Shown piece after piece: positions 3,229-44,893 of a DNA stretch of 64,000 bases. The first letter of the stretch is position 1, and each line of letters opens with the position of its first letter. The notes beneath the pieces were generated by a model that saw only the letters and a list, made by a program, of their open reading frames with translations, was not told where the DNA came from and searched no databases. Source of the stretch: Clostridia bacterium (GTDB lineage Bacteria; Bacillota; Clostridia; Christensenellales; Aristaeellaceae); the NCBI GenBank assembly GCA_017527065.1, contig JAFXQO010000004.1, positions 1-64,000 of the forward strand, read 5' to 3'. The position numbers were made by a program, and so were the translations under genes.

Positions 3229-3975
3229 TCAGTTGCCGTTGTAAACCTCGGAGCCTTCGACGGCGTCCCAGCGGTTGAGCGGCCAGATGATGCGCAGCAC
3301 TTTGCCGACGAACATATCGCGCGTGATGACGCCCACGCGGCGGCTGTCGTTTGAGTTGTCGCGGTTGTCGCCCATCACGAAGTACTCGTCCTCGCCGAGG
3401 GTCACGGTGAAGTTGCTCGTCGCGCGGCTGAAGGAGACGACGCGCTCGGGCGTGAGGTAGGGCTCGTCGTACTGAACGCCGTTGACGGTGAGCACGCCGT
3501 TCGTGACCTCGATGGTGTCGCCGGGCACGCCGACGACGCGCTTCACGAAGTTTTCCTTGCGGTTCGGATAGTGCAGTATGACCACGTCAAAACGGCTGGG
3601 GCCGTTGAGGCGCATGTCCAGCACGTCGACATAGAGCCGGTCGCCGTTGAGCAGGGTGTCGCTCATAGAGGGGCCGTCCACGCGGATGATGGTGAACAGG
3701 AACGCGCGCACCAGCAGCACCACCGCCAGCGCGACCGCGAAGGAGACGATCCAGTCCTTGACTTCCTTTTTGATCTTTTGGATGGTTTCCTTTTTCTTCT
3801 CATTATCCGCGGACTCATGGAGCTCGAGGAGGCCGTGCTTCTCCTCGCCGGTTTCCTCGGAGGATTCTTCCTGGCCTTCGGTTTCCTCGGGCCGTTCGTC
3901 CTGTTCATCGCTTCGGGCGTTGGCGGGCGATTCGGTCTTCTCCTCAATTTCGTTGGGATATTCGTTCTGTTCCAT
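3229..3975 (-). CDS. lepB: Signal peptidase I (first of a tandem pair)
   Basis: This membrane serine protease cleaves signal peptides from exported proteins. The 248-residue protein has an acidic Glu-rich cytoplasmic tail (1-60), one transmembrane helix (about 75-96), the catalytic Ser103 in GPSMSDTL and the catalytic Lys145 in NFVKRVVGVPGD. The C-terminal GDNRDNSNDSR box is also present. All S26 hallmark boxes are there, so it should be active. The start has AAAGGA upstream. It follows the second signal peptidase gene by 31 nt on the same strand and is probably co-transcribed with it and the DUF951 gene. Confidence 0.95.
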   Translation of the reverse strand: MEQNEYPNEIEEKTESPANARSDEQDERPEETEGQEESSEETGEEKHGLLELHESADNEKKKETIQKIKKEVKDWIVSFAVALAVVLLVRAFLFTIIRVDGPSMSDTLLNGDRLYVDVLDMRLNGPSRFDVVILHYPNRKENFVKRVVGVPGDTIEVTNGVLTVNGVQYDEPYLTPERVVSFSRATSNFTVTLGEDEYFVMGDNRDNSNDSRRVGVITRDMFVGKVLRIIWPLNRWDAVEGSEVYNGN

Positions 3976-4006
3976 GCTTCTCAGTCCTTTTCTGTCGATT
4001 CTGTCA

Positions 4007-4672
4007 TTATACGCGGCTGATGCGGTTCAAAGGCCAGAAGATGGCGCGCACTTTGCCGATGAGTTTCGTCACGGGCCCCACGTCCGCCGAGTGGCTGTCA
4101 TGGGAGACGCTGCGGTTGTCGCCGAGGACGAAGTATTCGCCTTCGCCCAGTGTGGTTTCAGGGTAGCTGTACCGGTTGGTATGGACGACGTAGGTCTCGT
4201 CGAGGGCCTCGCCGTTGACGTAGACCTGCCCGAAGTCGATCATGACCGTGTCGCCGGGCAGGGCGATCAGGCGCTTGACGATGTAGTCCGTGCGCCCCGG
4301 ATACTGGCAGATGACGATGTCGCCGCGGTCGTAGCCGCCGATCCGGGCGGAAAGCACGGAGACGTAGAGCTTGTCGCCGTTGACGAGCGTGTCCAGCATG
4401 GAGGTGCCGTCCACGGTGATGAGGGTGAAGACGAACATGCGGATGAGCACCGCCAACGCCAGCGCCGCGGCGAAGCTGAGCGCCCATGAAAGGATTTCAT
4501 GTATCACGGCTTTTTTCTTCTTTTCTCTTTTTTCCCTGTTTTCTTCTTCTAAGCTCTTTGTTTCTTCCCAGTTTTCTTCTTCTGAGTTCTGCGTTTCTTC
4601 CTCTGTGTTCTGCTTTTCTTCCTTATCTTCTTCCTCTGTGCTGCGTTGCGTCATGTCGGGCGCGGTCTGCAT
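4007..4672 (-). CDS. lepB: Signal peptidase I (second of a tandem pair)
   Basis: This is a 221-residue S26 signal peptidase. The catalytic Ser91 is in GTSMLDTL, Lys133 is in DYIVKRLIALPGD, and the last box reads GDNRSVSHDSH. One membrane helix spans about 60-86. Residues 12-55 are a Glu/Lys/Asn-rich repeat-like tail (EEE-D/N-K units). It is encoded by a purine-rich, visibly AT-richer stretch (4506-4640) that stands out from the GC-rich surroundings. The gene is similar to but clearly diverged from its neighbour at 3229-3975, so this is an old tandem duplication. The start has AAAGGGG upstream. Confidence 0.94.
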   Translation of the reverse strand: MQTAPDMTQRSTEEEDKEEKQNTEEETQNSEEENWEETKSLEEENREKREKKKKAVIHEILSWALSFAAALALAVLIRMFVFTLITVDGTSMLDTLVNGDKLYVSVLSARIGGYDRGDIVICQYPGRTDYIVKRLIALPGDTVMIDFGQVYVNGEALDETYVVHTNRYSYPETTLGEGEYFVLGDNRSVSHDSHSADVGPVTKLIGKVRAIFWPLNRISRV

Positions 4673-4687
4673 GCGATCTGCCCCTTT

Positions 4688-4879
4688 CTACTCTTCCGCG
4701 TGTGGGGTCAGGATTTTCCTGACTCTTTTTTCAAATTCCGGCCGGTCGAGCATGACCACGCGCCCGCAGCCCTCGCATTTGATCTTGACGTCCGCGCCGG
4801 TGCGCGTGACGATCCAGCGATCACTGCCGCAGGGATGCGTCTTGCGCATTTGCACCACATCGCCCAGGTTCAGCAGCAT
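4688..4879 (-). CDS. DUF951 family protein
   Basis: This is a 63-residue protein starting MLLNLGDVVQMRK, with THPCGS and CEGCGR cysteine motifs and a FEKRVRKI tail, which matches the small Firmicutes family DUF951 (PF06107). The cysteine pattern suggests a small metal-binding knuckle, and the function is unknown. The frame is open for 20 more codons upstream, but the start at 4879 is chosen because GGAGG lies 8 nt before it and because family members begin at this point. It is the first gene of a likely DUF951-lepB-lepB operon. Confidence 0.85.
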   Translation of the reverse strand: MLLNLGDVVQMRKTHPCGSDRWIVTRTGADVKIKCEGCGRVVMLDRPEFEKRVRKILTPHAEE

Positions 4880-4910
4880 GGCCTTCGCCTCCGAAACAAT
4901 TCTTCCCGTC

Positions 4911-5104: not shown

Positions 5105-5190
5105 GAAGCGTCTAAAGTTTAAGCATTTGTAAAATGCTGAAGCGCAGGATCGAAACCAACGATCATTTTTCCGAAAGGAGAAGTCGAATA

Positions 5191-8100
5191 ATGGACAAGA
5201 AGACCTGGTTGAGGAACGGTTTGTGCCTGCTGGCCATCGCGGCGCTGCTGCTGTGCGGCGCGTTCGCGCTGGCGGAAGATGATCCCGAAATGCCGCCGTC
5301 GCCCGAGTTGAGTTATTATACAGATAACTTGTATCTTCCGCGCGGCGAATTCGTCACTGTCGTAATATACGATGTTCCTGATTACTGGGGCTTTGAAAAC
5401 CTGCAGTACTACGCCGAGGTTTCAGGCTCCCCCGAGAGGTACTACTGGGACGAGGATGAAAGGACCATCAAAATCCCCACCGCGCAGTTCGAGGCCGGTC
5501 ATCAGTATATGCTGCAGGTGACTATGACAGCGGATGGGTATTGGGAACAGAGTTCTTCCACCGATACTATCATCGTGACCGAGCCCGAGGCAGCCATCAC
5601 ATGGGATATAGAGAAGACGGAAGCCGTGTCGCAGGAGCGGTTTGGCTGCTCGGTATATGCGCCCGGCGCGAAGGCGCTGCGGGTGAAGGTAAACAATGTC
5701 GTGCGGGCCTACTGGGACGATGAAGACGAGTATTTCCGGGACTACGTTGTCTTCTCTGTGTTCCACGACCGTCCGGGCACGTTCCAGGTCATCGCCGAAG
5801 CCTGTTTTGAGGGCGACGTGGAGGACGACAGCAACTGGGTGCAGTGCGATTCGCCGGCCAGCGTGACCATCACCACGCCCTATGGCGATATGATGACTCC
5901 GAGCATCTCGGCAGCTTCCAGCGTCGTGCGCGGCGATTTCCTGAGCGTCGATCTTCTGAATCCGGAGGATTACATCGGCCCCGACGCGCCTGATTTTGAA
6001 GGCCTGGAATTTGGCGTGGACGCCGTCATCAGCGACGCGGCGGGGAAGAAGTGGTCCTTCGAAGGGTTCTGGGATGGCGAAAGCGGGCACCCCATGCTCG
6101 TGCCTACGGGGAATTTGCCGGCAGGCGAGAATTACGTGCTGCACAGCTTTGCCTGGGCCAACGGTTACCAGGTCGGCGAGTATACGCAGCCGCTCACCAT
6201 CGAAGAGCCCGTGAGCGAACTGGATCACCCGGTCTACCTCACCGTCGATAAGGAAGAAGTCGTCGCCAACGAGACGTACTTCATGTCGGCCTACGCCCCC
6301 GGCGCGACCGCCATCGTCCTATACTGGCGGGACGATCCGAACGGGGAGTGGATCGAGGACGAGGGGTACTATGAAGAAACCGACAGCGCCTATTGGGAAA
6401 ACGCGGCCGATAGACGGATCGAACGGCTGGAATACGCCCTGCGCGCCTGCTACGGCGATCCGGAGGACGAGGATGACTGGAGCGAACTCAGCGATCTGAC
6501 GCCGCTGGTCGTCATGTCCGTCGAAGCGGACGGCTGGTTGGACGACGTGCCCGTCGAGCTCAGCGCCAATGTCCTGACGGCGGCCGAGGTGAACGCAGGC
6601 GAGGGCCTGCAAGTCACCATCGAGCCCGTCGAGGGCGCCACGTGGTACTACGTTACCCTGAACGATCACAATATTGAGGTTTCGCCTTGGGGCCTGGATG
6701 AAAACAAGGTCTTTGAAGACGACATCGAGCCCTTCGAGGGCACCTATACCTCAATCGTGCCGGCCGAGCGCCTGACACCCGGCCACATCTACGACGTGTG
6801 GGTGTGCGCGGGCGGCGCGCTGGGTCTGGAAAACACCAACTGCAACTATCCCTTCATCGTGCTGCCTGATGTGGAGACGTCCCCCTTCGCGCTGTACGTG
6901 AACGGGAGCACCGAGGACCAGAGCGCGGCAGCCAACCAAAAGAACAGCCTGTATGCCGTCGCGCCTCAGGGGGCGACGGGCGTCTGCGCGTTCTTTGGAG
7001 ACGATATGCGCTGGTCGGAAGGCCGCTACCTGGATCATACCATGAACCTTTACTGGCCCAAGGATTACCCGATCGTCGCGATGTACACCACCGACGACAT
7101 CTTTGACGAGAACGGCGAGCCTGTGGACGGCTGGTGGGATAACTGCGCCTGGGCGGGCTATTCCAACATCGTCACGCTGACCATCACGGCCAGCGGCGAG
7201 CTGCCCGACCTGCAGGTCAGCATACCCGAAGGATCCACTGTTGATCGCGGCGAGTGGCTGGAAATCACCATCGAAAACGCCGCTGAATTGCTGGCGACAG
7301 AGGCTCAGGACCTGCGCGTCGAAGCCGCGCCCTTCGGCAGGTATGATGGCCGCGGCTTCCAGTCCTGGTATGTCTGGAACGGCGAAGTCCATGACGGCGT
7401 GGGCACGATCATGATGCCCACCGCCGACCTGCCCGCGGGCGATTACCGCCTCGACGCGTATGCCATCGCCCCGGGTTATACCGGCGGTTATTGCGAGCCT
7501 CTCTTCTTCACCGTGACCGATCCGGAAATCGGGGAAGGCGAGCCCCCGGTATACCTTGAACTGGACAAGAACAATGTGGAAACGAACGAATGGTTCAACC
7601 TGTCCGCCTACGCGCCCGGCGCGACCCAGATCCAGATCGTTTGGAACGACAACGGAGACGATGAATGGCGGGACTGGGGCGATCCTGTCGACGGCGAGGG
7701 CACGGCGTGGAACGATAGAATAGACCATCCCGTGCATCGCACCTTCGCCTTGAGGGCATGCTACGGCGAGGACGATTGGACCGACGTATTCGAAGAGTAC
7801 GCCGTCACAGTGACGGTCCGCGCGCCTTCTGGCCGTCTGGGCACGATACGCGCCGAATTGAGCGCCGCCGTGATCGAGCCGGACGATGAACTGACCCTGA
7901 CAGTCTACCCGGTCGATAATGCCGAGGAATACTGGTTTGAGGTCAATGACAACGACATCCACGAGGGCAACAACTGTGTCTTCGGCCGACATGTCTTCCC
8001 CGGCGAGGACGGCTGCACCATTACCATCCCCACGGATGAACTCATTCCCGGCCACTACTACGAGGTGTCGCTGCACGCCCGCGGCGGGCGGGGCGTTGAG

Positions 8101-11100
8101 ACCGCCGACGACAGGTATATGTTCTTCGTGCAGCCTGAGGAATTCACCGATAATTTCACGCTGTACGTAAACGGTGGAACGGAGTCGTTTGAATGGCCTT
8201 ACGGCGATAACATCGACATACTGGTTGTTGCGCCGGAAGACGCCACCGGCGTGTGGGTTTCGGCCGGCGATAGGATCATCTCTCAGCCTGGCAACCGCCT
8301 GCATGACTACGGTACCCGCCTGGACAACGGCTTCATTTATCCCGTCGTTGCGAAGTACACCACCGGCGATGTCATCCTGGATGAGTTCGGCGAACCCGTG
8401 GACGGCTGGCAGGATGGCCTCGAATGGATCGGCTGCTCCAACATCGTTGTGGTGACCGCCGTCGCGGAGAACGGCGATCTTCCCAGGCCCGCCTTCGAGG
8501 CGCTCCATGACGTGACCCGCGGCGAGTTTATGACAATCACCATCACCAACGCCGACGCGTTCCGGAACATTGAGGGCCTGGAGATCGTGGCCGCGCCGTG
8601 GGCCAGGGGAGATGACGGTCACGGCTTCGACTCCTGGTACGGCTGGAACAGCGAGACAGGCGTCATCACGATGCCCACCGCCGACCTGCCCGAGGATTCT
8701 TACCTCCTGAACGTGTGGGCTCATGCGCCCGGCTATGTGGAGAGCTGGGGAGAGGAATTCATCTTCAACGTGACCGAGCCGCAGGCCGGCGAGGGCGAGC
8801 ACGACGTCGTCTTCACGCTGAACAAGCATGAGGTCGAAACGCTGGAATTCTTCGCCGTGTCCGCCTACGCGCCCGGCGCGAATGGCGTCAGAGTGGAAAC
8901 TGAACATAGACAATGGTTCAGACAGGGCCCCGGCGTCGCGTTCGAGGAAAGCTTCTGTAATCCCGACGAGATGGACTTTGTCGTATACGCCAACTGGGGC
9001 GATCTGGAAAACGATGAAGATTGGGAAGAATTCCATCCCGAAAACGCGCACCTGTCGGTCACCGCGCCGGAAGGCAAGCTGATCGACGTGCCCCTCACAT
9101 ACGCCTCCTCCGTCGCGGCGGGGCAGGATTTCACCATCACCGCCGGCAATGTGCCGCACGCGGAGTTCTTTAACTTCGAGGTGAGGGACAACAACATCTA
9201 CGACGAGGACGACTTCGTCTTCAGCGGCGGCGCGGGCACGTATACCATTCCCGCGAGACTGCTGACGCCCGGCCATGCCTACTATATTATGACGCACGCC
9301 GAGGCGCGCGGCTACGATGCCAGCGACGGCCGCTGCGGCTTTATCGTGCTGCCCGAGCCTGAAAACGTCAGAGGGGACATCGCCCTGAAGATCGACGGCG
9401 GCACCGAGGCCGTCCAGCGCCTCATCGGCCAGCGCTTCACCATCACCGTCGAGACGGGCGAGAACGTGAAAGCCACCGGCGTGTACATCTACGAGGGAAC
9501 CGACTGGGATCATAGCGAGGAAGGCTCCTACGAAAACGACGACTGGTGGATGCCCGATGAAGGCAGCTATACCTTCGCCGCGAAGTACACCACCGACGTC
9601 GACATCGACCCCGATTCCGCCTGGTGGGAGACCTGCGAGTGGGCGGGCTATTCCAACGCGGTGACGGTTACCGTCACCTCCAACGGAACCATGCCCGATC
9701 CAGTGATTGGCAATCTGCCGGAAACCATCCAGCGCGGCCAGTGGCTTGAGATTCCGCTGACGAACATCCTGGAGTATTTCAGCATCAACGGCGCTTACCG
9801 CGTGCAGGGCTGGTTCGAGGATCCGGAGACCGGCGAAGGCTGGGGCTGGACCGACATGACCGTGGACTACGGAACCAATCCCCCGACCGCTACGATCAAG
9901 ATGTCCACCGCCGAACTGTGGACGGGCGAGAACGGCAGCAAGACCTACGAGTTGCATTTCCTCGCCTTCGTCGACGGCCGGGTCGGCTGGCACGACAGCA
10001 ACGAAATCGTGCGCAATATCACCGTTACCGAGCCTAACAGCGCGGGAGATCATCCCATCTTCTTCTCCCTCAGCACGGATACGGCCATCACCGGCGTGGA
10101 TTACGGCGTCTCCATCTACGCGCCCGGCGCTGTCCAGATTCACTTGCAGAGGCAGGACGACGGTAATAACTGGAACTGGGGCGACCCCTACGACCCCGAA
10201 GGATACTGCGACAGCGTGTTTGAGAACTGGAACGAAACCCACCAGAGAGAGACGGATTACTGGGTGGAGGCGCTCTATGTCGACGCGGAAACCGGCGAAC
10301 AGACCTGGGTCGAGTGCCCGGATGTCCGGCATCTGAGCGTCATCGCGCCCAATGGCAAGATGGATCCCGTGAACGTGGTGCTCAGCGCCAGCGTGCTGGA
10401 TTCCCGCGATGATCTGACCATCACCATCAACCCCGTTCAGAACGCCATGGAATACTGGTTCGAGGTGACCGATGAGGATTACAGAACCAACGAATACGGC
10501 GACATCTACCAAGAGGAAATTCTCAACGGGTGGACCAACTGGGCTCCGCGGACCTACACCATACCCGCGGACGACCTGACGCCCGGCCATTCCTACAGCG
10601 TCCACGCCTGCGCCGTGGCCTTCGGCTACGACAACAGCGACGTGTTCGTCGGCTTCGTGGTGCGGCCCGATGATGCGGACGAGAACATCACGCTGACCGT
10701 GAACGGCAGCGCGGAAGACATGACCGTCACCGTCGGCCAGAACATGCGCGTGGCCGTGACAGCGCCCGCAAACGCCACCGGCGTCTATGTGGTCAACGCC
10801 GGCGTCCATGAGGACATGGCCACCGGCAATACCTACGACAACGATGACAACTGGTACATCGACGAGGCGGGCGTCTACACCTACCTGGCCAGCTACACGA
10901 CCGATCCGATCGACGAGAACGAGGAATGGTGGAAGACCTGCGACTGGGCCGGCACCTCTGCCCCGGTGAAGGTCACCGCCACGTCGAACGGCCGCCTGCC
11001 CATGCCGCAGTTCTCCATGCAGAGGACGGTCACCCGCGGCGACGAGATGGTCATCACCATTGACAACGCGGCCGAATACCGCGGCAAGGCTTTCAGCGGC

Positions 11101-14100
11101 AGCCTCAATTTGGTCGCCCGCGCCTGGGACAGGCAGCGGGACCGCTGGACCAGCGAATACGAATGGGACAGCGCGACGGGCGTCATCCGCCTGTCCACCG
11201 TCGATTTGGAAGCGGACACGATTTACGAAGTGCACGTTACCGCCGACGCGGACGGCTGGGAGGGTACCGGCTTCTGGTCCGCCCTTGAAGTGACCGCGCC
11301 CGAGGAAAACGACCACGCCATCCGCTTCTTCGCCGACCGCACGACCGTCCAAACCCGTGAGCACGCCTACCTCAGCGTGTACGCGCCCGGCGCCGACGGC
11401 CTGCGCCTTTACAGGGACGGCATGCTGGAGGATTGGTGGGACGACGATTACGTCATCTATGACGCCTCCGAGAACTGGGCTTGCGCGCACGCCTACACCG
11501 TTGCCGCCCGCTTCGACGGCGAATGGGTCTTCGCCGATAATACCATCACGATCACCGTGACCTCGGCCGGCCCGCTGCCCACGGTCACGATCGACGGCCC
11601 GGATTCCATCGAGGCCGGCGAGGACTACGTGTTCAGCGTGGTCAACCAGAATGGTCAGCCCATCGAGTTTGACGGCATCGACGTGAACGTCTGGCGTCAG
11701 AGCGACTGGCAGCCTATCTGGCAGGGCTACGCGCATGAAAACACCATTGCCGTTCCCGCCTTCAACGACTGGGGCGATGGAGACTCTTCCGTCTACCATG
11801 GCCAAGCGCGCATTGGTGACGATATCCTGCTCGCGAGCGGCGAGATGTACTCGCTGCGCGTCACGGTCAACCTGACCGGCCGCGATTCCGTCGAATTCCA
11901 GAAGTACTTCACCGTGGGCGATTACTACAACGAGGAGAACGGCTTCACCCTCACCGTCAACGGCGAGAACGCCCAGGCGACCGCGCAGGTCAACGAACCC
12001 GTGCGCGTCGTCGTGAACGCGCCTCAAAACGCCACGGCCATCCGCCTCTACGCGAAGGATGATGAGGAGTGGGGCGACGGCATACGCCGCGGCAATCAGC
12101 TGGACGACTATTACAGCTGGGGCAGCGCCGATGCGGTTCCCGTCTACGCCCGCTACACCACCGATACATTGACCGGCGAAGACTGGGAGATCGACTGGAA
12201 CAGCGTCAGCTGGAGCAACACGACCAGTAACGTCGTATACCTGACCCTGACGAACAGCGGCGCTGTGGCGTATCCTGAATTCACCGTGACGCCCAGGACC
12301 GTGACCCGCGGCGAGCTGGTCACCGTCACAATCACCAACTACACGGAGGGCCATTCCTACCGCGCCGAATTCGACCAGCCCGGCGTGCGCCGCTGGAACG
12401 GCACGGACTTCCGGGATGGCGACACCGCGATCCTGCACACCGAGAACCTGGAGCCCGGCGAATACCGCGTTCTGGTGGGCGATAACGGCGCGCTGGGCCT
12501 GACCGGCAGAGAGAGCTACATGCCCATCACTGTGGTCGAGCAGGCACAGCCGGTGTTCACGCTCAGCAGCCATAACCTCATGAACCGCCAGTCGTTCACC
12601 GTGTCGATGTACGCCCCCGGCGCGACAGCGCTGAAAGCTGTCATCGACGGCGATGAAGATCATCCCTGGTATGACTACGAAACCGACAACTTCATGGCCA
12701 GCGACTGGCGCTTCGACGACCCCGGCGAGCACACCATCACGCCCATGTGGCGCGACGCGAACAACAACTGGCACAGCCTGGAAGGCGAAACCATTAACGT
12801 CACTGCGCCCAACGGCCTCATCGACGTGCCCAACATCTCGTTCCCGAACGGCCGCGTCATCACGCTGGGTCAGGACATGATCGTCGACCTGGGCCGGAAC
12901 GATTTCGACTACGTCCACGCCTGGGCGCGCAGGGAAGGCCAAGACTTCTACGACAACAGCAACTTCGATAACTACAGGAACGGCATCGTCAACCCGCGCT
13001 TCGTGATTCCCGCGAGCGTCCTTGACGTGGCCGGAAACTACAGCATCTGGTTCAACCTCTACGGCGTCGGCTACCTGGACAACAGCATCGAAATCTCCTT
13101 CATCGTGACCGACGGCCAGACGTCCGGCCTGACGCTGGAGATCGACGGCGGAACCGCCGATGTCACCAAGCTCGTCAATCAGGAGTTTACGGTGAGCGTC
13201 ACAGGCGCGCCGGCGAATGCCACCGCCATCGCCCTGTACACCGGCAACGACTGGCAGTACTTCCCCGGCAGCACATTCGAGGAGGTCATGAGCCAGACCG
13301 ATGTAGCGAACCGGTGCTGGTACGCCAAGTACACCGAGGACGTACTGCCCGAGAATTTCGTCCGCTATGACCACAGAGGGCAGGAACTGACCTGGAGCGG
13401 CATCAGCAACATGATCGCTGTGACCACCACGGCGAACGGCACGCTGCCTCAGCCCACGTTCACGCTGGACAAGAACACCTTCGTCCGCGGCGAGATGATC
13501 GCTGTGCACCTCAGTAACTGCGTAGACGGCGCGAACTACAGCGCGGACATCCACACCGAAGGCGAATGGGATTGGTTCGGCCGCAGGTGGGGCGTCGGAA
13601 CGATCTACATGCCGACAGTGGATATCCCGGCCGGTGACTACGAGATGCACGTGAATGCGGACGGCGTGGTCGGCATGAAAGGCAGCTTCTCGACCATCAA
13701 CATCTCCGTGGTAGACGGGGAATTGGAACCGTTCTTCATGGTCGAAAAGACGGAAGTGGAGACGGGAGAAGGTTTCCGCTACTTCATCTACGCCCCCGGC
13801 GCGGACGCCGTGCGCTTCTGCTACGAGAGTATTGACAATCCCTGGCAGGAGGAAGAGGGAGATCACCTGGACAGCGGCGCTGGGTGCCATAACCCCAAAG
13901 ATTGGACCTTCCTGGCCGCGGCTACCTACGACGGCGGCGTGACCTGGGTGGAGATCGACCGCATTACAATAAGCGTCAGCGCGTCGCACGGCCCGATCGC
14001 GGTTGCGATCGGCGCGCCCAACGTGTTGTTCGCCGGCGACGATCTCACCCTGTCGATTGATACGGCCAAGGGCCAGTGGGGCATCGTGGAAATCCACGAT

Positions 14101-14583
14101 ATAGCGGATCAAGGCAGGTGTGTCTATGAGTATGACGACGCGCCGGTGAACACGCCCATTATGGTGCCCGCCAATACCTTCGTGGCTGGCAGAGAATACG
14201 AGATTTACGTTTACGCTTCACCGTTCGGCCAGGAGGGCGGTAGTGAACCGGGCTGGTACGAGAACCGCGTGACCAAGGAGTTGAGAGTCGTCGACATCAA
14301 CGACCTGTCCACCCTGACCCTGCCTGCGGCGCTGAGCGAGATCGGCGAGGAAGCCTTCGAGGGCATCGCCGCAGAGCGCGTGATCATCCCGAACGGGATT
14401 ACAACCATCGCCCCGCGCGCCTTCGCGAACTGCGATAACCTGATCATCGTGGAGATTCCGGACAGCGTGACCACCATTGACAGCACTGCATTCGACGGCA
14501 GCGACAGGATCATCTTCGTCTGCAGCGACACCAGCAAGGCGGCAGAGTTCGCGGAAGCCCACGACATCACCCATTTGAACTGA
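5191..14583 (+). CDS. Giant secreted modular-repeat protein with a terminal BspA-type LRR
   Basis: The start at 5191 is chosen because GAAAGGAG lies 10 nt upstream and a signal peptide follows (MDKKTWLRN, hydrophobic core, cleavage after ALA at about residue 28). The upstream in-frame Met at 5134 has no signal. The mature part is acidic, rich in Trp and Tyr, and built from about 29 modules of roughly 100 residues in four types. Type A contains xxRGExxxITIxN, with RG motifs starting at nt 5335, 5923, 7240, 8512, 9727, 11029, 12301 and 13480. Type B contains YAPGA (8 copies). Type C contains AGxxLTIxP and a late DNxI (7 copies). Type D contains LxVNGGTE, ATGVY, YTTD and WxGxSN (6 copies). The order is AB, then six ABCD units, then ABC. 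The last 90 residues are two BspA-like leucine-rich repeats (IPDSVTTIDSTAF). No LPXTG motif or membrane anchor is seen. The function is unknown; adhesion or extracellular binding is an inference from the beta-rich Ig-like pattern. Confidence 0.9.
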   Translation: MDKKTWLRNGLCLLAIAALLLCGAFALAEDDPEMPPSPELSYYTDNLYLPRGEFVTVVIYDVPDYWGFENLQYYAEVSGSPERYYWDEDERTIKIPTAQFEAGHQYMLQVTMTADGYWEQSSSTDTIIVTEPEAAITWDIEKTEAVSQERFGCSVYAPGAKALRVKVNNVVRAYWDDEDEYFRDYVVFSVFHDRPGTFQVIAEACFEGDVEDDSNWVQCDSPASVTITTPYGDMMTPSISAASSVVRGDFLSVDLLNPEDYIGPDAPDFEGLEFGVDAVISDAAGKKWSFEGFWDGESGHPMLVPTGNLPAGENYVLHSFAWANGYQVGEYTQPLTIEEPVSELDHPVYLTVDKEEVVANETYFMSAYAPGATAIVLYWRDDPNGEWIEDEGYYEETDSAYWENAADRRIERLEYALRACYGDPEDEDDWSELSDLTPLVVMSVEADGWLDDVPVELSANVLTAAEVNAGEGLQVTIEPVEGATWYYVTLNDHNIEVSPWGLDENKVFEDDIEPFEGTYTSIVPAERLTPGHIYDVWVCAGGALGLENTNCNYPFIVLPDVETSPFALYVNGSTEDQSAAANQKNSLYAVAPQGATGVCAFFGDDMRWSEGRYLDHTMNLYWPKDYPIVAMYTTDDIFDENGEPVDGWWDNCAWAGYSNIVTLTITASGELPDLQVSIPEGSTVDRGEWLEITIENAAELLATEAQDLRVEAAPFGRYDGRGFQSWYVWNGEVHDGVGTIMMPTADLPAGDYRLDAYAIAPGYTGGYCEPLFFTVTDPEIGEGEPPVYLELDKNNVETNEWFNLSAYAPGATQIQIVWNDNGDDEWRDWGDPVDGEGTAWNDRIDHPVHRTFALRACYGEDDWTDVFEEYAVTVTVRAPSGRLGTIRAELSAAVIEPDDELTLTVYPVDNAEEYWFEVNDNDIHEGNNCVFGRHVFPGEDGCTITIPTDELIPGHYYEVSLHARGGRGVETADDRYMFFVQPEEFTDNFTLYVNGGTESFEWPYGDNIDILVVAPEDATGVWVSAGDRIISQPGNRLHDYGTRLDNGFIYPVVAKYTTGDVILDEFGEPVDGWQDGLEWIGCSNIVVVTAVAENGDLPRPAFEALHDVTRGEFMTITITNADAFRNIEGLEIVAAPWARGDDGHGFDSWYGWNSETGVITMPTADLPEDSYLLNVWAHAPGYVESWGEEFIFNVTEPQAGEGEHDVVFTLNKHEVETLEFFAVSAYAPGANGVRVETEHRQWFRQGPGVAFEESFCNPDEMDFVVYANWGDLENDEDWEEFHPENAHLSVTAPEGKLIDVPLTYASSVAAGQDFTITAGNVPHAEFFNFEVRDNNIYDEDDFVFSGGAGTYTIPARLLTPGHAYYIMTHAEARGYDASDGRCGFIVLPEPENVRGDIALKIDGGTEAVQRLIGQRFTITVETGENVKATGVYIYEGTDWDHSEEGSYENDDWWMPDEGSYTFAAKYTTDVDIDPDSAWWETCEWAGYSNAVTVTVTSNGTMPDPVIGNLPETIQRGQWLEIPLTNILEYFSINGAYRVQGWFEDPETGEGWGWTDMTVDYGTNPPTATIKMSTAELWTGENGSKTYELHFLAFVDGRVGWHDSNEIVRNITVTEPNSAGDHPIFFSLSTDTAITGVDYGVSIYAPGAVQIHLQRQDDGNNWNWGDPYDPEGYCDSVFENWNETHQRETDYWVEALYVDAETGEQTWVECPDVRHLSVIAPNGKMDPVNVVLSASVLDSRDDLTITINPVQNAMEYWFEVTDEDYRTNEYGDIYQEEILNGWTNWAPRTYTIPADDLTPGHSYSVHACAVAFGYDNSDVFVGFVVRPDDADENITLTVNGSAEDMTVTVGQNMRVAVTAPANATGVYVVNAGVHEDMATGNTYDNDDNWYIDEAGVYTYLASYTTDPIDENEEWWKTCDWAGTSAPVKVTATSNGRLPMPQFSMQRTVTRGDEMVITIDNAAEYRGKAFSGSLNLVARAWDRQRDRWTSEYEWDSATGVIRLSTVDLEADTIYEVHVTADADGWEGTGFWSALEVTAPEENDHAIRFFADRTTVQTREHAYLSVYAPGADGLRLYRDGMLEDWWDDDYVIYDASENWACAHAYTVAARFDGEWVFADNTITITVTSAGPLPTVTIDGPDSIEAGEDYVFSVVNQNGQPIEFDGIDVNVWRQSDWQPIWQGYAHENTIAVPAFNDWGDGDSSVYHGQARIGDDILLASGEMYSLRVTVNLTGRDSVEFQKYFTVGDYYNEENGFTLTVNGENAQATAQVNEPVRVVVNAPQNATAIRLYAKDDEEWGDGIRRGNQLDDYYSWGSADAVPVYARYTTDTLTGEDWEIDWNSVSWSNTTSNVVYLTLTNSGAVAYPEFTVTPRTVTRGELVTVTITNYTEGHSYRAEFDQPGVRRWNGTDFRDGDTAILHTENLEPGEYRVLVGDNGALGLTGRESYMPITVVEQAQPVFTLSSHNLMNRQSFTVSMYAPGATALKAVIDGDEDHPWYDYETDNFMASDWRFDDPGEHTITPMWRDANNNWHSLEGETINVTAPNGLIDVPNISFPNGRVITLGQDMIVDLGRNDFDYVHAWARREGQDFYDNSNFDNYRNGIVNPRFVIPASVLDVAGNYSIWFNLYGVGYLDNSIEISFIVTDGQTSGLTLEIDGGTADVTKLVNQEFTVSVTGAPANATAIALYTGNDWQYFPGSTFEEVMSQTDVANRCWYAKYTEDVLPENFVRYDHRGQELTWSGISNMIAVTTTANGTLPQPTFTLDKNTFVRGEMIAVHLSNCVDGANYSADIHTEGEWDWFGRRWGVGTIYMPTVDIPAGDYEMHVNADGVVGMKGSFSTINISVVDGELEPFFMVEKTEVETGEGFRYFIYAPGADAVRFCYESIDNPWQEEEGDHLDSGAGCHNPKDWTFLAAATYDGGVTWVEIDRITISVSASHGPIAVAIGAPNVLFAGDDLTLSIDTAKGQWGIVEIHDIADQGRCVYEYDDAPVNTPIMVPANTFVAGREYEIYVYASPFGQEGGSEPGWYENRVTKELRVVDINDLSTLTLPAALSEIGEEAFEGIAAERVIIPNGITTIAPRAFANCDNLIIVEIPDSVTTIDSTAFDGSDRIIFVCSDTSKAAEFAEAHDITHLN

Positions 14584-14667: not shown

Positions 14668-17600
14668 TCATTCGTCGATCCGGACGCTGGCTTCGCTGCC
14701 TCCCTCCCGGAGATTTCTGACCACGATCTGCCGCCCGATGCGCTCCCGCAGCTCGCCCACGTGCGACACGATGCCGACCAGCCGCGAGCCCTCGCCCAGC
14801 CGCAGCAGCGTGTTCACCGCCTGGTCGAGGGCGGCGGGATCCAGCGAGCCGAAGCCCTCGTCGACGAACAGCGTGTCGATGGTCACGCCGCCCGCCTCCT
14901 CGGAAATGGCGTCCGACAGGCCCAGCGCCAGCGCCAGCGAGGCCAGGAACGCCTCGCCGCCGGAGAGCGACGCCACGGGCCGCTCCCGCCCGGAATGGTA
15001 GTCCATCACATTCAATTCCAGCGCGCCGTCCATCAGGCCGTTCAATAGAGCCCGACGCCGCAGCTCGAACCGGCCGTCGGTCATCCGGGTGAAGCGCGCG
15101 TTGGCCCGCCTGAGCACCTGCTCGAGATAACCGCGCTGGACGTACTGCTCGAAGGACACGCGGTATTTGCCGATCATCTTGCCGTCGCAGAGCTGGCTCA
15201 GGCGCGTAAGCCGCGCCAGCTTCCGGCCCGCCGCGTCGTGTCGCGCCGTCAGGCCTTCCAGCTTTTCAAGCAGGCTCTCGTTCAGGCGCATGCGGCCTTC
15301 GATGACGGAAAGGCGCGCGCGGCATTCGTCAAGCTCCCGTTTTTCGGCTTCGGCTTCGCCGGCTTCCGCGGCCTGCGGCTGTTCGGTTTCCCGGGTGAGC
15401 CGCTCGACGTCGGCGCGGGCGGCGGCCAGGCCCCGGTCATAGTCGGATACGGCGCGCTCGATGGCGGCGCGGGCGTCGTCGTCCAGCTTCGCGGCGAGAT
15501 AGTCCGCCTCGCTGGCGAAACCCTGCTCGGCGATGGCCTCAGTACGCCGCTGGCCGGCGCCGGCCAGAGCGGCTTCCGCCTGCCGCAGATGCTCGTCGAG
15601 GGCCGCGGCCTGGCCCTCCAACTCGCCCCGCTTCTTTTCAGCCGAGCGGCGCAGCGCCTCCGCGCCGTCGATGGCCTGGGCAAGCTGCAAGGCGGTTTGC
15701 TCGGCTTCGGCGAGGGAGGCGCGGGCGTGGGCTGGATCGGTTCCGGCTTCCTTCAGCGAATCGAAAAGCGCCTGCGCGGCGGCGCGCCGCTGGGCCAGCG
15801 CTTCGGCTGTCTGCGCCAGCGCCGCATTGCCTTTTTCGAGCAGCGATTCGTCCTTTTCAAGGGCCTGCGCATGCTCGCCCAGCTTCAGTCTGATGAGCGC
15901 CCGCTCGGCCGCGAGGCGGTTCAGCCGGTCGATTTCCTGCTCCAGCCCGGCGAGTTCCCGGCGGAGAACCAAGGCGGCGTCGTTGATCGCGTCGGCTTCC
16001 GCGGCGACGCCGAGGGCCCCTGAGGCGTCCGTCAGGCGCTTGCGGACGGCGTCCAGCCGGGCGACGGCCTCGGCGGCCCGCTCGCGAATCTCAGCCGTCG
16101 CCGCGCGGCAGCTCTTGGCGCGCTGCTCGAGCTGGCGCAGTTCGTCCTCGGAGGGAATATCCCGGCTCAGCGGGGCGGGGCGGGGGTGGCTCGTCGAGCC
16201 GCACACCGGGCAGGGCGCATCCGGCGCGAGGGTGCGCGCCAGAAGGCCCGCCTGGCCCAGAAGATAGCGCGTGTTGGCGTCCGCGAATGCGGCCTCGGCG
16301 CGCTGCTGGACGTCGGCGGCGGCCTGTTGGCGCGCCGCCAGCGCCGCCACCTGGGCGGCCAGCTGGGCGGTTTGATCGTACAGCGCGGCCATATCGCGCA
16401 GGGCGTTCAGCCGGTTCAGGCGCTCGCTCCGCTGGAGCTGGGCCTGCGCCCGCCGCGTCTCGTCCTGCTCGCCCCGCTCAAGCTCACTTCTCATGCCGGC
16501 GATGAGCGCGCGGCGCTTTGCTGCCTCGTCGTTCAGGGCGCGCAGGGCCTCGCTCTGCCGCGCGTGAAGCGCCTGCGCCTCCCGGGCAAGCTGCGTGAGC
16601 CGCGCGAGTTCGTCGTATTTCGGCAGGAGCCGGCGCAGCGTCTGGACGCGCAGGGCGAGCGCGTTCAGTTCTTCGCGCCGCCGCGGGAGCGAGGCGACGG
16701 CTTCATCCGCGCGGGCTTGCTCCGCTTGGGCCGCGGCGCGCTGGGCGTCCAGCGCCTGACGGCGCGTCCGCGCTTCTTCGAGGCGGCGGCGCGCGGTTTC
16801 GAGCAGGGCTTCCTCCGGGGCGAGCCGGCGGGCCCGCGCGTCGGCGCTGAGGGCCGTGCGGCGCGCGGCCATGTCCCCGGCCTGATCGAGCAGCGCCGCC
16901 TCACGATGCGCGGCCTCCTCCAACTGCGCGCGCAGTTTTTTCAGGCGCTCGCCCTCGGCCTGCCGCTTTACGGCCTCGGCATAGGCGGCTTCGCGGGCGG
17001 CCAGCTCGGCCTTTGCTTCGTCGAGGGCGGCGCGGTCGGCTTCGAGCATCTCGCGGGCCTGCCCGATGAGCGGCAGCGCCTGGGCGGCGGTCCGGATATC
17101 CTGCTGTTCGCCCTCGGGGAACTGGATGGAACCGAGAGCGAACAGGATTTCCTTTGACAGCGCGTCGGTTTCGGCGGCCTGCGCCTCGACGCGTTCCCGG
17201 AGGATCCGCCCGGCGCGCTCGAAAGCCCACGTGTCGAACAGGCGGCGGAAGACGGCTTCCCGGTCGCGGCTGCGGGCCAGGAGCAGGTTCAGGAATTCGC
17301 CCTGGGCGAGAAGGGAGACCTGCTTGAACTGGGCGTAGTCCAGCCGCAGGAGCCCGTATATTTCTCGCTTCACGTCGGCGTCGTTTTCGACAACGCGGCC
17401 GTCCGGGAGGGTCAGGCAAACGGCGGCGGGCTGCGACACGGTGCCTTCGCCTCGCAGCGCGGCGCGCTCGTAGGCGGGGGAGCGGGTGATGTCGTAGGTC
17501 TTTCCGGCGTGCTCGAAGCGCAGGCGAACAAAGGTGGGATCGCCCGGCGCGGCGTAGTCGCTGCGCATGCCGGAGCCCGAGCGGCGCTCGTTTGTCACAC

Positions 17601-17763
17601 GACCGTACAGCGCGTAGACGATGGCGTCGAACAGCGTGGTCTTGCCCGAGCCGGTGTCGCCGGTAATCAGGAAAACGCCCGATTCGCCCAGCGCGCTGAA
17701 ATCAATCGTCGTCTCGCGGGCGTAGGGGCCGAACATGGACAGGGTCAGTGCAATAGGTCTCAT
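14668..17763 (-). CDS. sbcC: Exonuclease SbcCD ATPase subunit SbcC
   Basis: This is the ATPase of the SbcCD (Rad50/Mre11-type) complex, which opens and cuts DNA hairpins and ends. The protein has about 1,031 residues. Walker A is GDTGSGKTT near residue 40. Long coiled-coil arms are broken by the zinc-hook motif CPVCGS (about 16198-16212). The ABC signature SLSGGEAFLASLALALGL and Walker B TLFVDEGFGSLD are near the C-terminus. The frame stays open upstream to 18381, but the true start is the ATG at 17763, which overlaps the sbcD stop in an ATGA junction and begins MRPIALTLSMFGPY as expected for the family. Confidence 0.96.
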   Translation of the reverse strand: MRPIALTLSMFGPYARETTIDFSALGESGVFLITGDTGSGKTTLFDAIVYALYGRVTNERRSGSGMRSDYAAPGDPTFVRLRFEHAGKTYDITRSPAYERAALRGEGTVSQPAAVCLTLPDGRVVENDADVKREIYGLLRLDYAQFKQVSLLAQGEFLNLLLARSRDREAVFRRLFDTWAFERAGRILRERVEAQAAETDALSKEILFALGSIQFPEGEQQDIRTAAQALPLIGQAREMLEADRAALDEAKAELAAREAAYAEAVKRQAEGERLKKLRAQLEEAAHREAALLDQAGDMAARRTALSADARARRLAPEEALLETARRRLEEARTRRQALDAQRAAAQAEQARADEAVASLPRRREELNALALRVQTLRRLLPKYDELARLTQLAREAQALHARQSEALRALNDEAAKRRALIAGMRSELERGEQDETRRAQAQLQRSERLNRLNALRDMAALYDQTAQLAAQVAALAARQQAAADVQQRAEAAFADANTRYLLGQAGLLARTLAPDAPCPVCGSTSHPRPAPLSRDIPSEDELRQLEQRAKSCRAATAEIRERAAEAVARLDAVRKRLTDASGALGVAAEADAINDAALVLRRELAGLEQEIDRLNRLAAERALIRLKLGEHAQALEKDESLLEKGNAALAQTAEALAQRRAAAQALFDSLKEAGTDPAHARASLAEAEQTALQLAQAIDGAEALRRSAEKKRGELEGQAAALDEHLRQAEAALAGAGQRRTEAIAEQGFASEADYLAAKLDDDARAAIERAVSDYDRGLAAARADVERLTRETEQPQAAEAGEAEAEKRELDECRARLSVIEGRMRLNESLLEKLEGLTARHDAAGRKLARLTRLSQLCDGKMIGKYRVSFEQYVQRGYLEQVLRRANARFTRMTDGRFELRRRALLNGLMDGALELNVMDYHSGRERPVASLSGGEAFLASLALALGLSDAISEEAGGVTIDTLFVDEGFGSLDPAALDQAVNTLLRLGEGSRLVGIVSHVGELRERIGRQIVVRNLREGGSEASVRIDE

Positions 17764-18908
17764 GCGTCCTCCTCCCGCGCGGCTTCCGTGAGCACGTCGC
17801 GCATGTCGCTTTGTTCCTCGACGGTGAGGTCGAGGCCGGTTATCTCCGAGGCGAAGCGGCTGAACACCGCCATGGGGTCGCGCCGGTCTTCCCGCCGGGC
17901 GACGGGCTCTCCGCCGGGCATATTCAGCATCATGTCGCGCTCGCGGCGCACGTTGACCGTGCGCGGGTAGCGGGCGCGCAGCCTCTGCATGGCGTCGTAG
18001 ACCGGCTCCTCGTCGGTGAGCAGCACTTCCAGGAAATCGCCGTCGTTTTCCGCCGGCGGCGCGGCGAGGATGTCCTCGAGCCGGCCGCGCACCGCGCGCA
18101 GCCCCACGGAGGGATGAAACGGCTCCTGCTTCACCGAGACCGCGCCCTTTTCCATCATATCCACCACGGTGAAGCTCTTCGCCGCGCCCGCCTCGCCCAG
18201 CGCGTATTTGAGCGGCGCGCCGGCGTAGCGCACGGTCTCCGCGCCGACGCGCTGGGCCTGGTGCAGGTGCCCCAGCGCTACGTAATCGAAGGGCGCGAAA
18301 TGGGCGGCGCTCACCAGCTCCGTGCCGCCTGCGAAGAGCATTTCGGAATCGGAGCGGATGGGTACGTGCCCGGCGGCGCACACGAACTGATGCCCCACGA
18401 GCACATTGCGCTGCGACGCGTCGATGGGCATGCGTTCGATGGCGACGCGCACGGCGTCGTCGTATCCGGCGACGGGCTCATCCACGGCCTGCGCGCGGAT
18501 ATGGCCCGGCCGGAAGAAGGGCAGCAGGTAGAAGTTGACCGGGCCGAAGGCGTCCGACAGGGTGACGGGCGGCTGGCCGAGGCGGTAATCGCCGGCGATG
18601 TGGATGCCGGCCTGACCCAGGATGTCGCTGAGGAAGGCGAGCCGGTCGGTGGAATCGTGGTTGCCCGCGATGATGAGCGCGGGGATATTCAGCCGGGACA
18701 GGGCGGACAGGAAACCGCTCAGCAGGTTCACGGCCTGAACGGAGGGCGTGGAGCGGTCGTAGACGTCGCCCGCGATGACGACGGCGTCGGCCCCGGCGTG
18801 GGCGGCGTAGTTCACGATTTCCGTGAGCGCCTCGCGCTGCAGGTCGATCAGGCTGAACTCGGCGAGGGAGCGGCCCAGGTGAAGATCGGCGAGATGGATA
18901 AAACGCAT
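17760..18908 (-). CDS. sbcD: Exonuclease SbcCD nuclease subunit SbcD
   Basis: This is an Mre11-type metallophosphoesterase of 382 residues, the nuclease partner of SbcC. Its phosphodiesterase motifs are DLHLG at residues 8-12, GDVYDR, GNHDS, and later GHQF and GHLHQ. The start at 18908 (MRFIHLADLHLG) is preferred over the upstream in-frame Met at 18968, because the family begins directly with the first strand and a GGAG lies upstream. It overlaps sbcC by 4 nt, which suggests translational coupling. Confidence 0.96.
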   Translation of the reverse strand: MRFIHLADLHLGRSLAEFSLIDLQREALTEIVNYAAHAGADAVVIAGDVYDRSTPSVQAVNLLSGFLSALSRLNIPALIIAGNHDSTDRLAFLSDILGQAGIHIAGDYRLGQPPVTLSDAFGPVNFYLLPFFRPGHIRAQAVDEPVAGYDDAVRVAIERMPIDASQRNVLVGHQFVCAAGHVPIRSDSEMLFAGGTELVSAAHFAPFDYVALGHLHQAQRVGAETVRYAGAPLKYALGEAGAAKSFTVVDMMEKGAVSVKQEPFHPSVGLRAVRGRLEDILAAPPAENDGDFLEVLLTDEEPVYDAMQRLRARYPRTVNVRRERDMMLNMPGGEPVARREDRRDPMAVFSRFASEITGLDLTVEEQSDMRDVLTEAAREEDA

Positions 18909-19021
18909 GCTTTCTGTCTCCGCTTTCTTGATGATTTGAACGGCGCGTCCCTGAAAGATTAACCGCATTGAGAGGGAAAGGGCGCGCGGGGCGGCGTATA
19001 ATAGACATACTGTTCTGCCTC

Positions 19022-19050
19022 ATTATACCACGATAAGCCTTGCCTGAAAA
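19022..19050 (-). promoter_or_regulatory. Promoter of sbcDC
   Basis: On the minus strand, TTTTCA (19050-19045), a 17-nt spacer and TATAAT (19027-19022), with TGG just before the -10 (extended -10). The leader to sbcD is about 110 nt. Confidence 0.7.
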
Positions 19051-19087
19051 GACAGTCGGGGGGAAAGAACACGAAGGGATGAGCGAA

Positions 19088-20026
19088 ATGAATAATTTAC
19101 TTGTTACGAGCAACATCGTCTTCCCCATTTTCCTGGTGATGCTGATCGGCTTCCTGTCGCGGCGATTCGGCCTGATGAACGAAGAGACGGTCAAAGGCTG
19201 CAACAAGCTGGTGTTCCGCGTGTTTCTGCCGGTGTCGCTGTGCCGCAGCATCATGCGCGTGGATTCGAGCTTCTCCATGTCCGGCGGGCTGCCGCTGTTT
19301 GCCGCGCTGGGCACGCTGGCGGTGTTCGCCGTATGCATGCTGGTCATTCCGCGCATAGAGCCGGAGAACAGCCGGCGCGGCGTGATGATCCAGGGCATCT
19401 TCCGCAGCAATTACGCCATCTTCGGCATCCCGCTGGCCCAGGCGCTCTATCCCCAGGGCGACGGCGGCGTGGCGGCGATGATGGTCGTGGCCGTGATACC
19501 GGTGTTCAACATACTGGCCGTCGTCGCGCTGGAGATCTTCCGCGGCGGCAAGTTCGACCTGAAGCGCATCGTCCTGGGCGTGCTGAAGAATCCGCTCATC
19601 TGGGGCTGCCTGATCGGATTTGTGGTCATGAAGACCGGCCTGAAGCTGCCCTCGGTGATCAATTCGACGGTGGACAGCCTGGCGAGCCTGGCCTCGCCCC
19701 TGGCGCTGTTCGCGCTGGGCGCGTCGCTTAAGCCGGGCAAGATGATGGGCAACGCGAAGGCGCTGCTGGTCAGCGTCGGCGCGAAGCTGGTGATCGTGCC
19801 GGCCGCGGCGCTGATCATCGCCTACGCCATCGGCTGGCGCGGTCCGGAATTCGCCACGCTGATGATCGTGTTCGGCTCGCCGACGGCGGTCAGCTCGTTC
19901 ACCATGGCCGAGCAGATGGGCGGCGACGGCGACCTGGCGGCCCAGCAGGTGGTGTTGACCACGGTGTTCTCGGCGGTCACGATCTTTCTGATGATTTTCC
20001 TCTTTAAGACATGGGGCATTCTGTAA
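19088..20026 (+). CDS. AEC-family transporter (auxin efflux carrier type)
   Basis: This is an integral membrane protein of about 312 residues with ten predicted hydrophobic helices in two halves separated by a charged central loop. It matches the AEC (PF03547) family of small organic-anion or malonate-type permeases. Hallmarks are the N-terminal MLIGFLSRRFGLMNEE segment, a central NPLIWGCLIGFV segment and a C-terminal GSPTAVSSFTMAEQMGGD segment. The start is uncertain. ATG at 19088 has GAAGGGA about 8 nt upstream, and ATG at 19079 is also possible. It is divergent from sbcDC. The substrate cannot be told from sequence. Confidence 0.88.
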   Translation: MNNLLVTSNIVFPIFLVMLIGFLSRRFGLMNEETVKGCNKLVFRVFLPVSLCRSIMRVDSSFSMSGGLPLFAALGTLAVFAVCMLVIPRIEPENSRRGVMIQGIFRSNYAIFGIPLAQALYPQGDGGVAAMMVVAVIPVFNILAVVALEIFRGGKFDLKRIVLGVLKNPLIWGCLIGFVVMKTGLKLPSVINSTVDSLASLASPLALFALGASLKPGKMMGNAKALLVSVGAKLVIVPAAALIIAYAIGWRGPEFATLMIVFGSPTAVSSFTMAEQMGGDGDLAAQQVVLTTVFSAVTIFLMIFLFKTWGIL

Positions 20027-20056
20027 TCAGATCGGAAGAAGGGAGAAAAAGAACCA

Positions 20057-42129: not shown

Positions 42130-42180
42130 GGGGGACAGGCTCCGCGCTCAGCGCGCGGCAACGAGCCGATCCCCCTTTTT
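42130..42180 (+). terminator. Terminator after the GH78-like gene
   Basis: GGGGGA (42130-42135) with a following AGGCTC pairs with GAGCC...TCCCCC (42170-42175), then TTTTT. The right half lies inside the last codons of the convergent GH116 gene. Confidence 0.7.
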
Positions 42181-44721: not shown

Positions 44722-44781
44722 GGAAAAGCCCCTTTCCTTAAAATGATAATGGCAAACACATTGCCGGGCGATATAAAGAAG

Positions 44782-44806
44782 AAAACCCCCGAGAAATCGG
44801 GGGCTT
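44782..44806 (-). terminator. Terminator after tRNA-Thr
   Basis: On the minus strand, CCCCCGA-TTTC-TCGGGGG followed by TTTTC, about 12 nt past the tRNA 3' end. It separates the tRNA from the GH116 gene. Confidence 0.85.
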
Positions 44807-44817
44807 TCGTCGTTACA

Positions 44818-44893
<76 letters not shown>

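What the first reader, a model, noticed from the sequence alone, without database searches (positions are those of the whole stretch)
5191..14583. 3,130-residue secreted protein built from a new four-module (A-B-C-D) superunit
A, B, C and D modules of about 100 residues each alternate in a fixed order. The RG motifs of module A recur at spacings of 439, 424, 405, 434, 424 and 393 codons. I recognise no named family in the modules apart from a general Ig-like beta pattern, and they are acidic and Trp-rich. A protein this large points to strong selection for extended surface display or binding.
Basis: partly seen in the sequence, partly recalled or inferred. Interest (0 to 1): 0.7.

Follow-up and report, generated by a model that had tools for sequence, protein, structure and literature searches.

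The report
Giant secreted protein of alternating Ig-like modules
A gut-type Clostridia genome encodes a 3,130-residue exported protein built from two apparently new kinds of Ig-like block in strict alternation and closed by a short leucine-rich-repeat cap; it belongs to a variable family that looks like surface fibres, although neither its target nor how it is held on the cell is known.

Summary
ORF 5191-14583 (+) encodes 3,130 residues and the A-module RG motifs recur at exactly the stated spacings. The interpretation needs three changes.

(1) A and C are one homologous class (X); B and D appear to be another (Y). The basic unit is an X-Y pair and ABCD a duplicated pair. With window-only profiles, 239 of 244 adjacent modules alternate X/Y in 19 relative ORFs, and 196 of 198 in 23 further ORFs.

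Most relatives with an intact C-terminus have it, and so do ORFs without X-Y modules.

(3) Matches occur in 64 of 308 genomes of this bacterial family; samples of the order and class gave only weak, isolated ones. Against a congener the protein differs far more than four control genes, though orthology is not proven.

Pfam names neither module; weak similarities point to Ig/fn3-like folds. No known anchor was found.

Best reading: a stalk that works like a fibrillar adhesin's, not filed as a member.

The parts
5191..14583 (+). whole ORF, 3,130 aa, about 348 kDa, calculated pI 4.06
5191..5274 (+). likely signal peptide (hydrophobic core GLCLLAIAALLLC, then A-x-A); end read by eye
   Evidence: hydropathy scan
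5296..5880 (+). A1-B1 (one X-Y pair)
5881..7188 (+). unit 2, A-B-C-D
7189..8463 (+). unit 3, A-B-C-D
8464..9678 (+). unit 4, A-B-C-D
9679..10983 (+). unit 5, A-B-C-D (colinear with unit 6 of G004)
10984..12255 (+). unit 6, A-B-C-D (colinear with unit 7 of G004)
12256..13437 (+). unit 7, A-B-C-D
13438..14289 (+). A8-B8-C8; the array ends on an X-class module
14314..14583 (+). C-terminal LRR_5 cap with stop codon (PF13306 matches residues 3058-3123 of the 3,149-aa frame, E 6.6e-13)

Best explanation
The gene encodes an exported, probably rod-like surface or extracellular protein. A signal peptide sends it out of the cell. Fifteen X-class and fourteen Y-class modules of about 90-120 residues alternate to make an extended acidic rod, and a C-terminal LRR_5 cap follows the last X module. 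The repeating unit is the X-Y pair; ABCD is a pair that duplicated and differentiated before the window species and G004 separated. The rod most likely works like the stalk of a fibrillar adhesin, projecting or multiplying weak binding surfaces (acidic, Trp/Tyr-rich) away from the cell. Shown: the ORF, the alternation, the relation A-C, the cap, the large divergence from the G004 counterpart and the unstable location. Supported but weaker: the relation B-D. Inferred: the Ig fold, surface location, adhesion. Guessed: that the shared cap retains the protein on the cell.
For: Alternation: 239 of 244 adjacent modules (gap under 50 aa) in 19 relative ORFs with window-only profiles; a second pass with rebuilt profiles gives 275 of 289. 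Second set, 23 ORFs from 20 other genomes that I picked from the listing: 196 of 198, against a mean of 103 and maximum of 128 in 1,000 label shuffles (two of these ORFs, L211 and L212, look near-identical, so rows are not all independent). Fourteen window X-Y pairs align with 4 invariant columns. Profile searches of PDB give weak Ig-like matches: pairs to LILRB1 (E 2.1e-4), Y to a bacterial Ig domain (E 0.0017), X to CopC, IL-23 receptor and fibronectin (best E 0.0012). Conserved columns have lag-2 hydropathy autocorrelation 0.26 (X) and 0.36 (Y), shuffle s.d. 0.10. A strong hydrophobic core near the start is seen in 37 of 37 ORFs with an uncut start, with an A-x-A after it in 32 (no control run). 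The cap is found in 18 of 21 ORFs with an uncut C-terminus in the second set and in 13 of 19 by HMM in the first.
Against: No structure could be predicted, so the Ig fold rests on weak matches and periodicity. Composition is on the border of two disorder scales (Uversky 0.458 against a boundary of 0.457; TOP-IDP 0.055). With larger alignments X and Y are themselves related at 83.6%, then 57.7%, so the 85.3% for B-D does not by itself set B-D apart from X-Y. No known anchor: a sortase motif appears in 1 of 41 ORF ends scanned (LPATA, inside a cap; two of the 41 ends are not true C-termini) and no end has a hydrophobic span (highest mean 1.49), so the protein may be released. No known adhesive domain lies in the array. 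Context is not conserved: 13 window neighbours gave only 5 low-identity hits (25-32%) in flanks of relatives. Three ORFs of the first set (L124, L134, L135) and three of the second (L204, L213, L214) have no cap match.
Confidence: 0.5

Rival explanations
1. A multivalent glycan-binding protein: the Trp-rich Y modules are carbohydrate-binding modules with a CBM48-like Ig fold, and the array is a polyvalent binder of plant fibre, starch or mucin rather than a passive stalk.
For: The Y motif (APGAT ... W) resembles the CBM48 motif (recalled). A 1,4-alpha-glucan branching enzyme is among the Y hits (E 0.12). CBM_48 is matched by 3 of 70 X-Y pairs, best E 0.0014. A pullulanase X25 model matches 1 of 14 window pairs at E 0.074. 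Y has two conserved Trp columns, 83% and 91%.
Against: CBM_48 falls to 1 of 71 (E 0.026) when Y modules are scanned alone and is not among the families matched by the 14 window pairs at E up to 1. Conserved Trp may simply be core.
Confidence: 0.2
2. A secreted matrix, sheath or scaffold protein that is not attached to its own cell; the cap binds other secreted proteins or the array polymerises.
For: No sortase motif, C-terminal hydrophobic span or Pfam anchor in the window protein. The cap also ends ORFs without X-Y modules.
Against: Nearly half of detected fibrillar-adhesin-like proteins also lack a known anchor (passage of PMC8286594).
Confidence: 0.2
3. A fast-diversifying exposed protein for evasion of phages, protozoa or the host: the variability itself is the function.
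For: dN/dS of the aligned parts is about 0.55-0.84 (four segments) against 0.06-0.25 for four other genes between the same two genomes. Beside the signal-peptidase block the gene is not found in the stretches fetched from four congeners; two of these four have no X-Y match at all.
Against: dN stays below dS. Units 5-6 are colinear with units 6-7 of G004, so it is not a shuffled cassette. The G004 gene lies elsewhere, so it may be a paralogue, and its divergence would then be no rate. One species pair only; assemblies 72-89% complete.
Confidence: 0.1
4. Not a real gene: a fortuitous open frame in GC-rich DNA, or an assembly artefact.
For: A 2,453-aa ORF is also open on the opposite strand (6751-14112).
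Against: Three or more matches in 45 of 308 genomes of the family, a ribosome-binding-like stretch and a signal-peptide-like start, codon-position GC 0.59/0.43/0.81, dN below dS.
Confidence: 0.01

Closest known systems
Fibrillar adhesins / FA-like proteins (PMC8286594 and PMC9210967, passages seen)
   Same: Very long, exported, a repetitive region of domains; many members of that class also lack a known anchor.
   Different: No Pfam stalk domain, no recognised adhesive domain in the array, no sortase motif; two module classes alternate strictly; the C-terminus carries an LRR_5 cap.
Periscope proteins (PMC8201768, listing abstract; one passage on them in PMC9210967)
   Same: Tandem-domain surface stalk.
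   Different: Periscope repeats are highly identical; here mean identity within a module type is 24-34% and no DNA tandem repeat is listed.
Mobiluncus mulieris giant Ig-like adhesin (PMC10619420, listing abstract only)
   Same: Giant protein made of tens of Ig-like domains.
   Different: That protein is described with ester, isopeptide, disulfide and thioester cross-links; here no Lys column exceeds 21% and no Cys column 24% in X or Y.
BspA-type LRR_5 surface proteins (PF13306)
   Same: The last about 66-90 residues are LRR_5.
   Different: The LRR part is one short cap on a 3,000-residue array, not the main body.

Membership tests
Fibrillar adhesin (as described in passages of PMC9210967) | Large length and a rod-like repetitive domain region | tested here: met
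   3,130 aa, 29 modules in line; the rod shape itself is inferred
Fibrillar adhesin (as described in passages of PMC9210967) | Recognised stalk domain (Pfam gathering score) | tested here: not met
   Only LRR_5 passes its cut-off in the window protein; best of 14 window pairs E 0.0082. One or a few relatives' modules reach Big_3_5 at E 4.2e-6 and fn3 at 3.6e-5
Fibrillar adhesin (as described in passages of PMC9210967) | Adhesive region | tested here: inconclusive
   No known adhesive domain in the array; the LRR_5 cap could be one
Fibrillar adhesin (as described in passages of PMC9210967) | Cell-surface anchor | tested here: not met
   No sortase motif in the last 50 residues, no C-terminal hydrophobic span, no Pfam anchor domain in the window protein
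Fibrillar adhesin (as described in passages of PMC9210967) | Exposed on the cell and binds a target | not testable with these tools
   needs labelling and binding assays
Periscope protein | Highly identical tandem repeats | tested here: not met
BspA-type LRR_5 protein | LRR_5 match above gathering score | tested here: met
   49.1 bits against 27.7, residues 3058-3123 only
CBM48 | Pfam CBM_48 match | tested here: not met
   Not among families matched by the 14 window pairs at E up to 1; best of 70 family pairs E 0.0014
Cross-linked Ig adhesins (isopeptide, disulfide) | Conserved Lys or Cys positions in the domains | tested here: not met
   Highest Lys column 21% (Y) and 9% (X); highest Cys column 24% (Y) and 6% (X)

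The most novel reading that the evidence does not exclude
The C-terminal LRR_5 cap is a dedicated retention or sorting module of this bacterial family: one short domain placed at the end of otherwise unrelated exported proteins holds them on the cell in place of sortase motifs, and the X-Y giants are its largest cargo.
Probability: 0.25. Interest if true: 0.65.

Novelty: new variant of a known kind. Interest (0 to 1): 0.45.

Why it matters
If right, it adds two domain classes that Pfam does not name and a giant-protein family with matches in 64 of 308 sampled genomes of one Clostridia family (three or more matches in 45). It is a simple case in which a two-domain unit became a four-domain unit. 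[quoted passage not shown]

Tried and rejected
Rejected: periscope protein (repeats too diverged); CBM48 membership; cross-linked Ig adhesin; a functional link to neighbours. Two of the genome's three Peptidase_S26 matches lie beside the gene, which suggested a dedicated export pair, but 13 window neighbours gave only 5 low-identity hits in flanks of relatives, and congeners keep the peptidases without the giant gene beside them in the stretches fetched.

Led nowhere: self-BLAST printed nothing. An iterated X/Y profile drifted until Y swallowed X and was discarded, then replaced. A regex listing of caps missed some and was redone with an HMM. A gpmI search in G003 found none, so the rate control is G004 only. 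Rfam lists one tRNA. One search listed neighbours in relatives that I did not annotate. Paper searches; from the titles and abstract starts listed (lists capped) none is on this family.

Rows left out: one search skipped ORFs with fewer than 3 modules. Of the 18 genomes, own, G077, G099 and G100 were not fetched. One search left out two ORFs cut at the C-terminus (L202, L221). One search used 26 of the 30 loci that one search gave for 109 matches; L265 repeated the ORF of L258, so 21 of 26 is properly 20 of 25. The cap profile was built from C-terminal caps and so favours C-terminal matches; no control profile from internal LRR_5 repeats was run.

Full report
What is there. The ORF at 5191-14583 (+) is real and complete: 3,130 residues from ATG 5191, or 3,149 from an upstream ATG at 5134. 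The 5191 start has a ribosome-binding-like stretch and matches the start implied in G004. Spacings of the RG motif are exactly those reported. The layout is signal peptide, A1-B1, six A-B-C-D units, A8-B8-C8 and a C-terminal LRR_5 cap.

What the modules are. Profiles of the four window module types were compared with hhalign: A-C 96.4%, B-D 85.3%, all other pairs 6.3% or less. Fourteen X-Y pairs (8 AB, 6 CD) align along their length with four invariant positions. The repeating unit is thus an X-Y pair. With larger alignments X and Y are themselves related at 83.6%, then 57.7% after a second round. That is compatible with a common Ig-like ancestor, but it means that the B-D figure alone is not decisive; the two-class reading rests mainly on A-C, the pair alignment and the alternation test.

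Relatives. With a six-unit alignment, 18 of 200 relatives (own genome included) have a match. With a 70-pair alignment, 64 of 308 genomes of the same family do, in 22 of 50 genera; 45 have three or more matches, 7 have two and 12 have one. In a sample of the order, 9 of 396 match: own, two others of the family, and six outside it with one or two weak matches each (best 3.9e-10). In a sample of the class, 7 of 391 match: own plus six single weak matches (best 2.9e-10). No wider group was searched. One member lies in a genome reached through a named record, Clostridia bacterium RGIG5678 from sheep duodenum, the only match among 10 named genomes tried. The own genome shows no second X-Y protein by unit query or profile.

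The alternation rule. Profiles built from the window alone were run on 19 relative ORFs from 14 genomes: 239 of 244 adjacent modules alternate X/Y; a second pass with rebuilt profiles gives 275 of 289. On 23 ORFs from 20 further genomes, 196 of 198 alternate; 1,000 label shuffles reached at most 128. Only neighbours less than 50 residues apart are counted, so missed modules are not scored. The four-letter ABCD order is narrower: next-but-one neighbours switch subtype in 27 of 27 cases in G004, 27 of 33 in G003 and 224 of 334 in other genera (shuffle mean 166, maximum 189).

Age and divergence. Each of 29 window modules has its best match in G004 among modules of the same letter, some by a small margin (C8: 57 against 53), and units 5-6 of the window are colinear with units 6-7 of G004. 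Those units share 50% identity over 824 residues, dN 0.417, dS 0.71; three other segments give dN/dS of about 0.55, 0.72 and 0.84. Between the same genomes gpmI is 97% identical (dN/dS 0.08, dS 0.23), ArsC-like 93% (0.06, dS 0.57), and the two signal peptidases 82% and 77% (0.23 and 0.25, dS 0.51 and 0.63). The giant protein is less constrained than these four. Caution: the G004 gene lies at another place, so it may be a paralogue; that dS resembles that of three of the four controls speaks for equal age, but is not proof, and simple dN/dS at 50% identity is rough.

Variable location. Upstream lie a short conserved gene, two Peptidase_S26 genes and an ArsC-like gene. This block is found in whole or part in four congeners, but what follows it differs. 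In G001 and G002 it is the transporter block that lies at 19.0-21.6 kb in the window, inverted; in G003 and G004 it is other DNA. In none of the stretches fetched there is an X or Y match. G004 and G003 carry members on other contigs, and no X-Y match was found in G001 or G002. Assemblies are 72-88% complete, so absence is provisional.

The cap. PF13306 scores 49.1 bits on residues 3058-3123, and PDB LRR proteins match the same part (4fs7, E 5.5e-17). It is found in 18 of 21 ORFs with an uncut C-terminus of the second set and in 13 of 19 ORFs of the first set by HMM, with a 14th (L126) confirmed. Of the other five, one is cut by a contig end, one is an interrupted frame and three (L124, L134, L135) lack it. 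In three genomes one search lists 109 cap matches and gives 30 loci. Of the 25 distinct ones that I examined, 20 lie within 15 residues of the stop, and 5 belong to X-Y proteins (corrected for one duplicate). Carriers without X-Y in the own genome include ORFs of 1,476 aa (full cap) and 836 aa (partial, about 30 residues from the end); these two and a 731-aa ORF at a contig end have a signal-peptide-like start. For most carriers in the other genomes the start was not seen. Some carriers are ordinary LRR_5 proteins, where a terminal LRR is expected, and the profile favours C-terminal matches. A shared C-terminal module still suggests a common role; retention on the cell is my guess.

Fold. Profile searches of PDB and Pfam give mostly weak Ig/fn3-like matches with no dominant family: no Pfam family is matched by more than 4 of the 71-72 modules scanned per class, though one or a few relatives' modules reach Big_3_5 at E 4.2e-6 and fn3 at 3.6e-5. 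Conserved columns show beta-type lag-2 periodicity, while whole-array composition is borderline on two disorder scales (scales and cut-offs recalled). The X motif L-x2-G...Y...G resembles the tyrosine corner of fn3 domains (recalled). I take an Ig-like fold as likely, not shown.

Function. The most economical reading is a long exported rod that works like a fibrillar-adhesin stalk. It fails two tested features of that class (a known stalk domain and a known anchor), so I do not file it as a member. Glycan binding by Y modules, a released matrix role and diversification against attack remain open.

Literature seen: passages of PMC8286594 and PMC9210967; listing abstracts of PMC10619420 and PMC8201768. 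No paper on this family was recognised in the listings; the library is partial and some lists were capped.

Noticed in passing
window 6751-14112 (-): A 2,453-aa open frame runs antisense to the giant gene; G004 has a similar one (2,628 aa, L245:9992-17875). Probably a by-product of codon use, not tested.
   Followed up: no
window 3229-4672 (-): Two adjacent type I signal peptidase (S26) genes; only three S26 matches in the whole genome.
   Followed up: partly
window about 4690-4900 (-): Short conserved gene (about 70 aa, DUF951-like, name recalled) at the border of a region that differs between the window and four congeners.
   Followed up: partly
window 14668-18968 (-) and 19040-21575 (+): sbcC/sbcD and a transporter block; in G001 and G002 the transporter block lies inverted next to the signal-peptidase block.
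   Followed up: partly
L224 (G000:C61), L223 (G000:C11), L225 (G000:C65), L226 (G000:C74), L215:10768-12714: ORFs without X-Y modules that end in a full or partial copy of the same LRR_5 cap; the last has a sub-threshold transglutaminase-core match.
   Followed up: partly
G617:C4:15434-15985 (L193): A weak single X-Y match (E 1.6e-7) lies in a 9,334-aa open frame of another family of the same class.
   Followed up: no
window 53898-56078 (+): 726-aa protein with seven bacterial SH3_3 stretches.
   Followed up: no
window 42148-44862 (-) and 51670-52740 (-): GH116-like glycosidase and a DUF2961 protein.
   Followed up: no
L125 (G063:C391): A relative's giant gene is interrupted by an in-frame stop, giving frames of 1,082 and 699 residues.
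   Followed up: no
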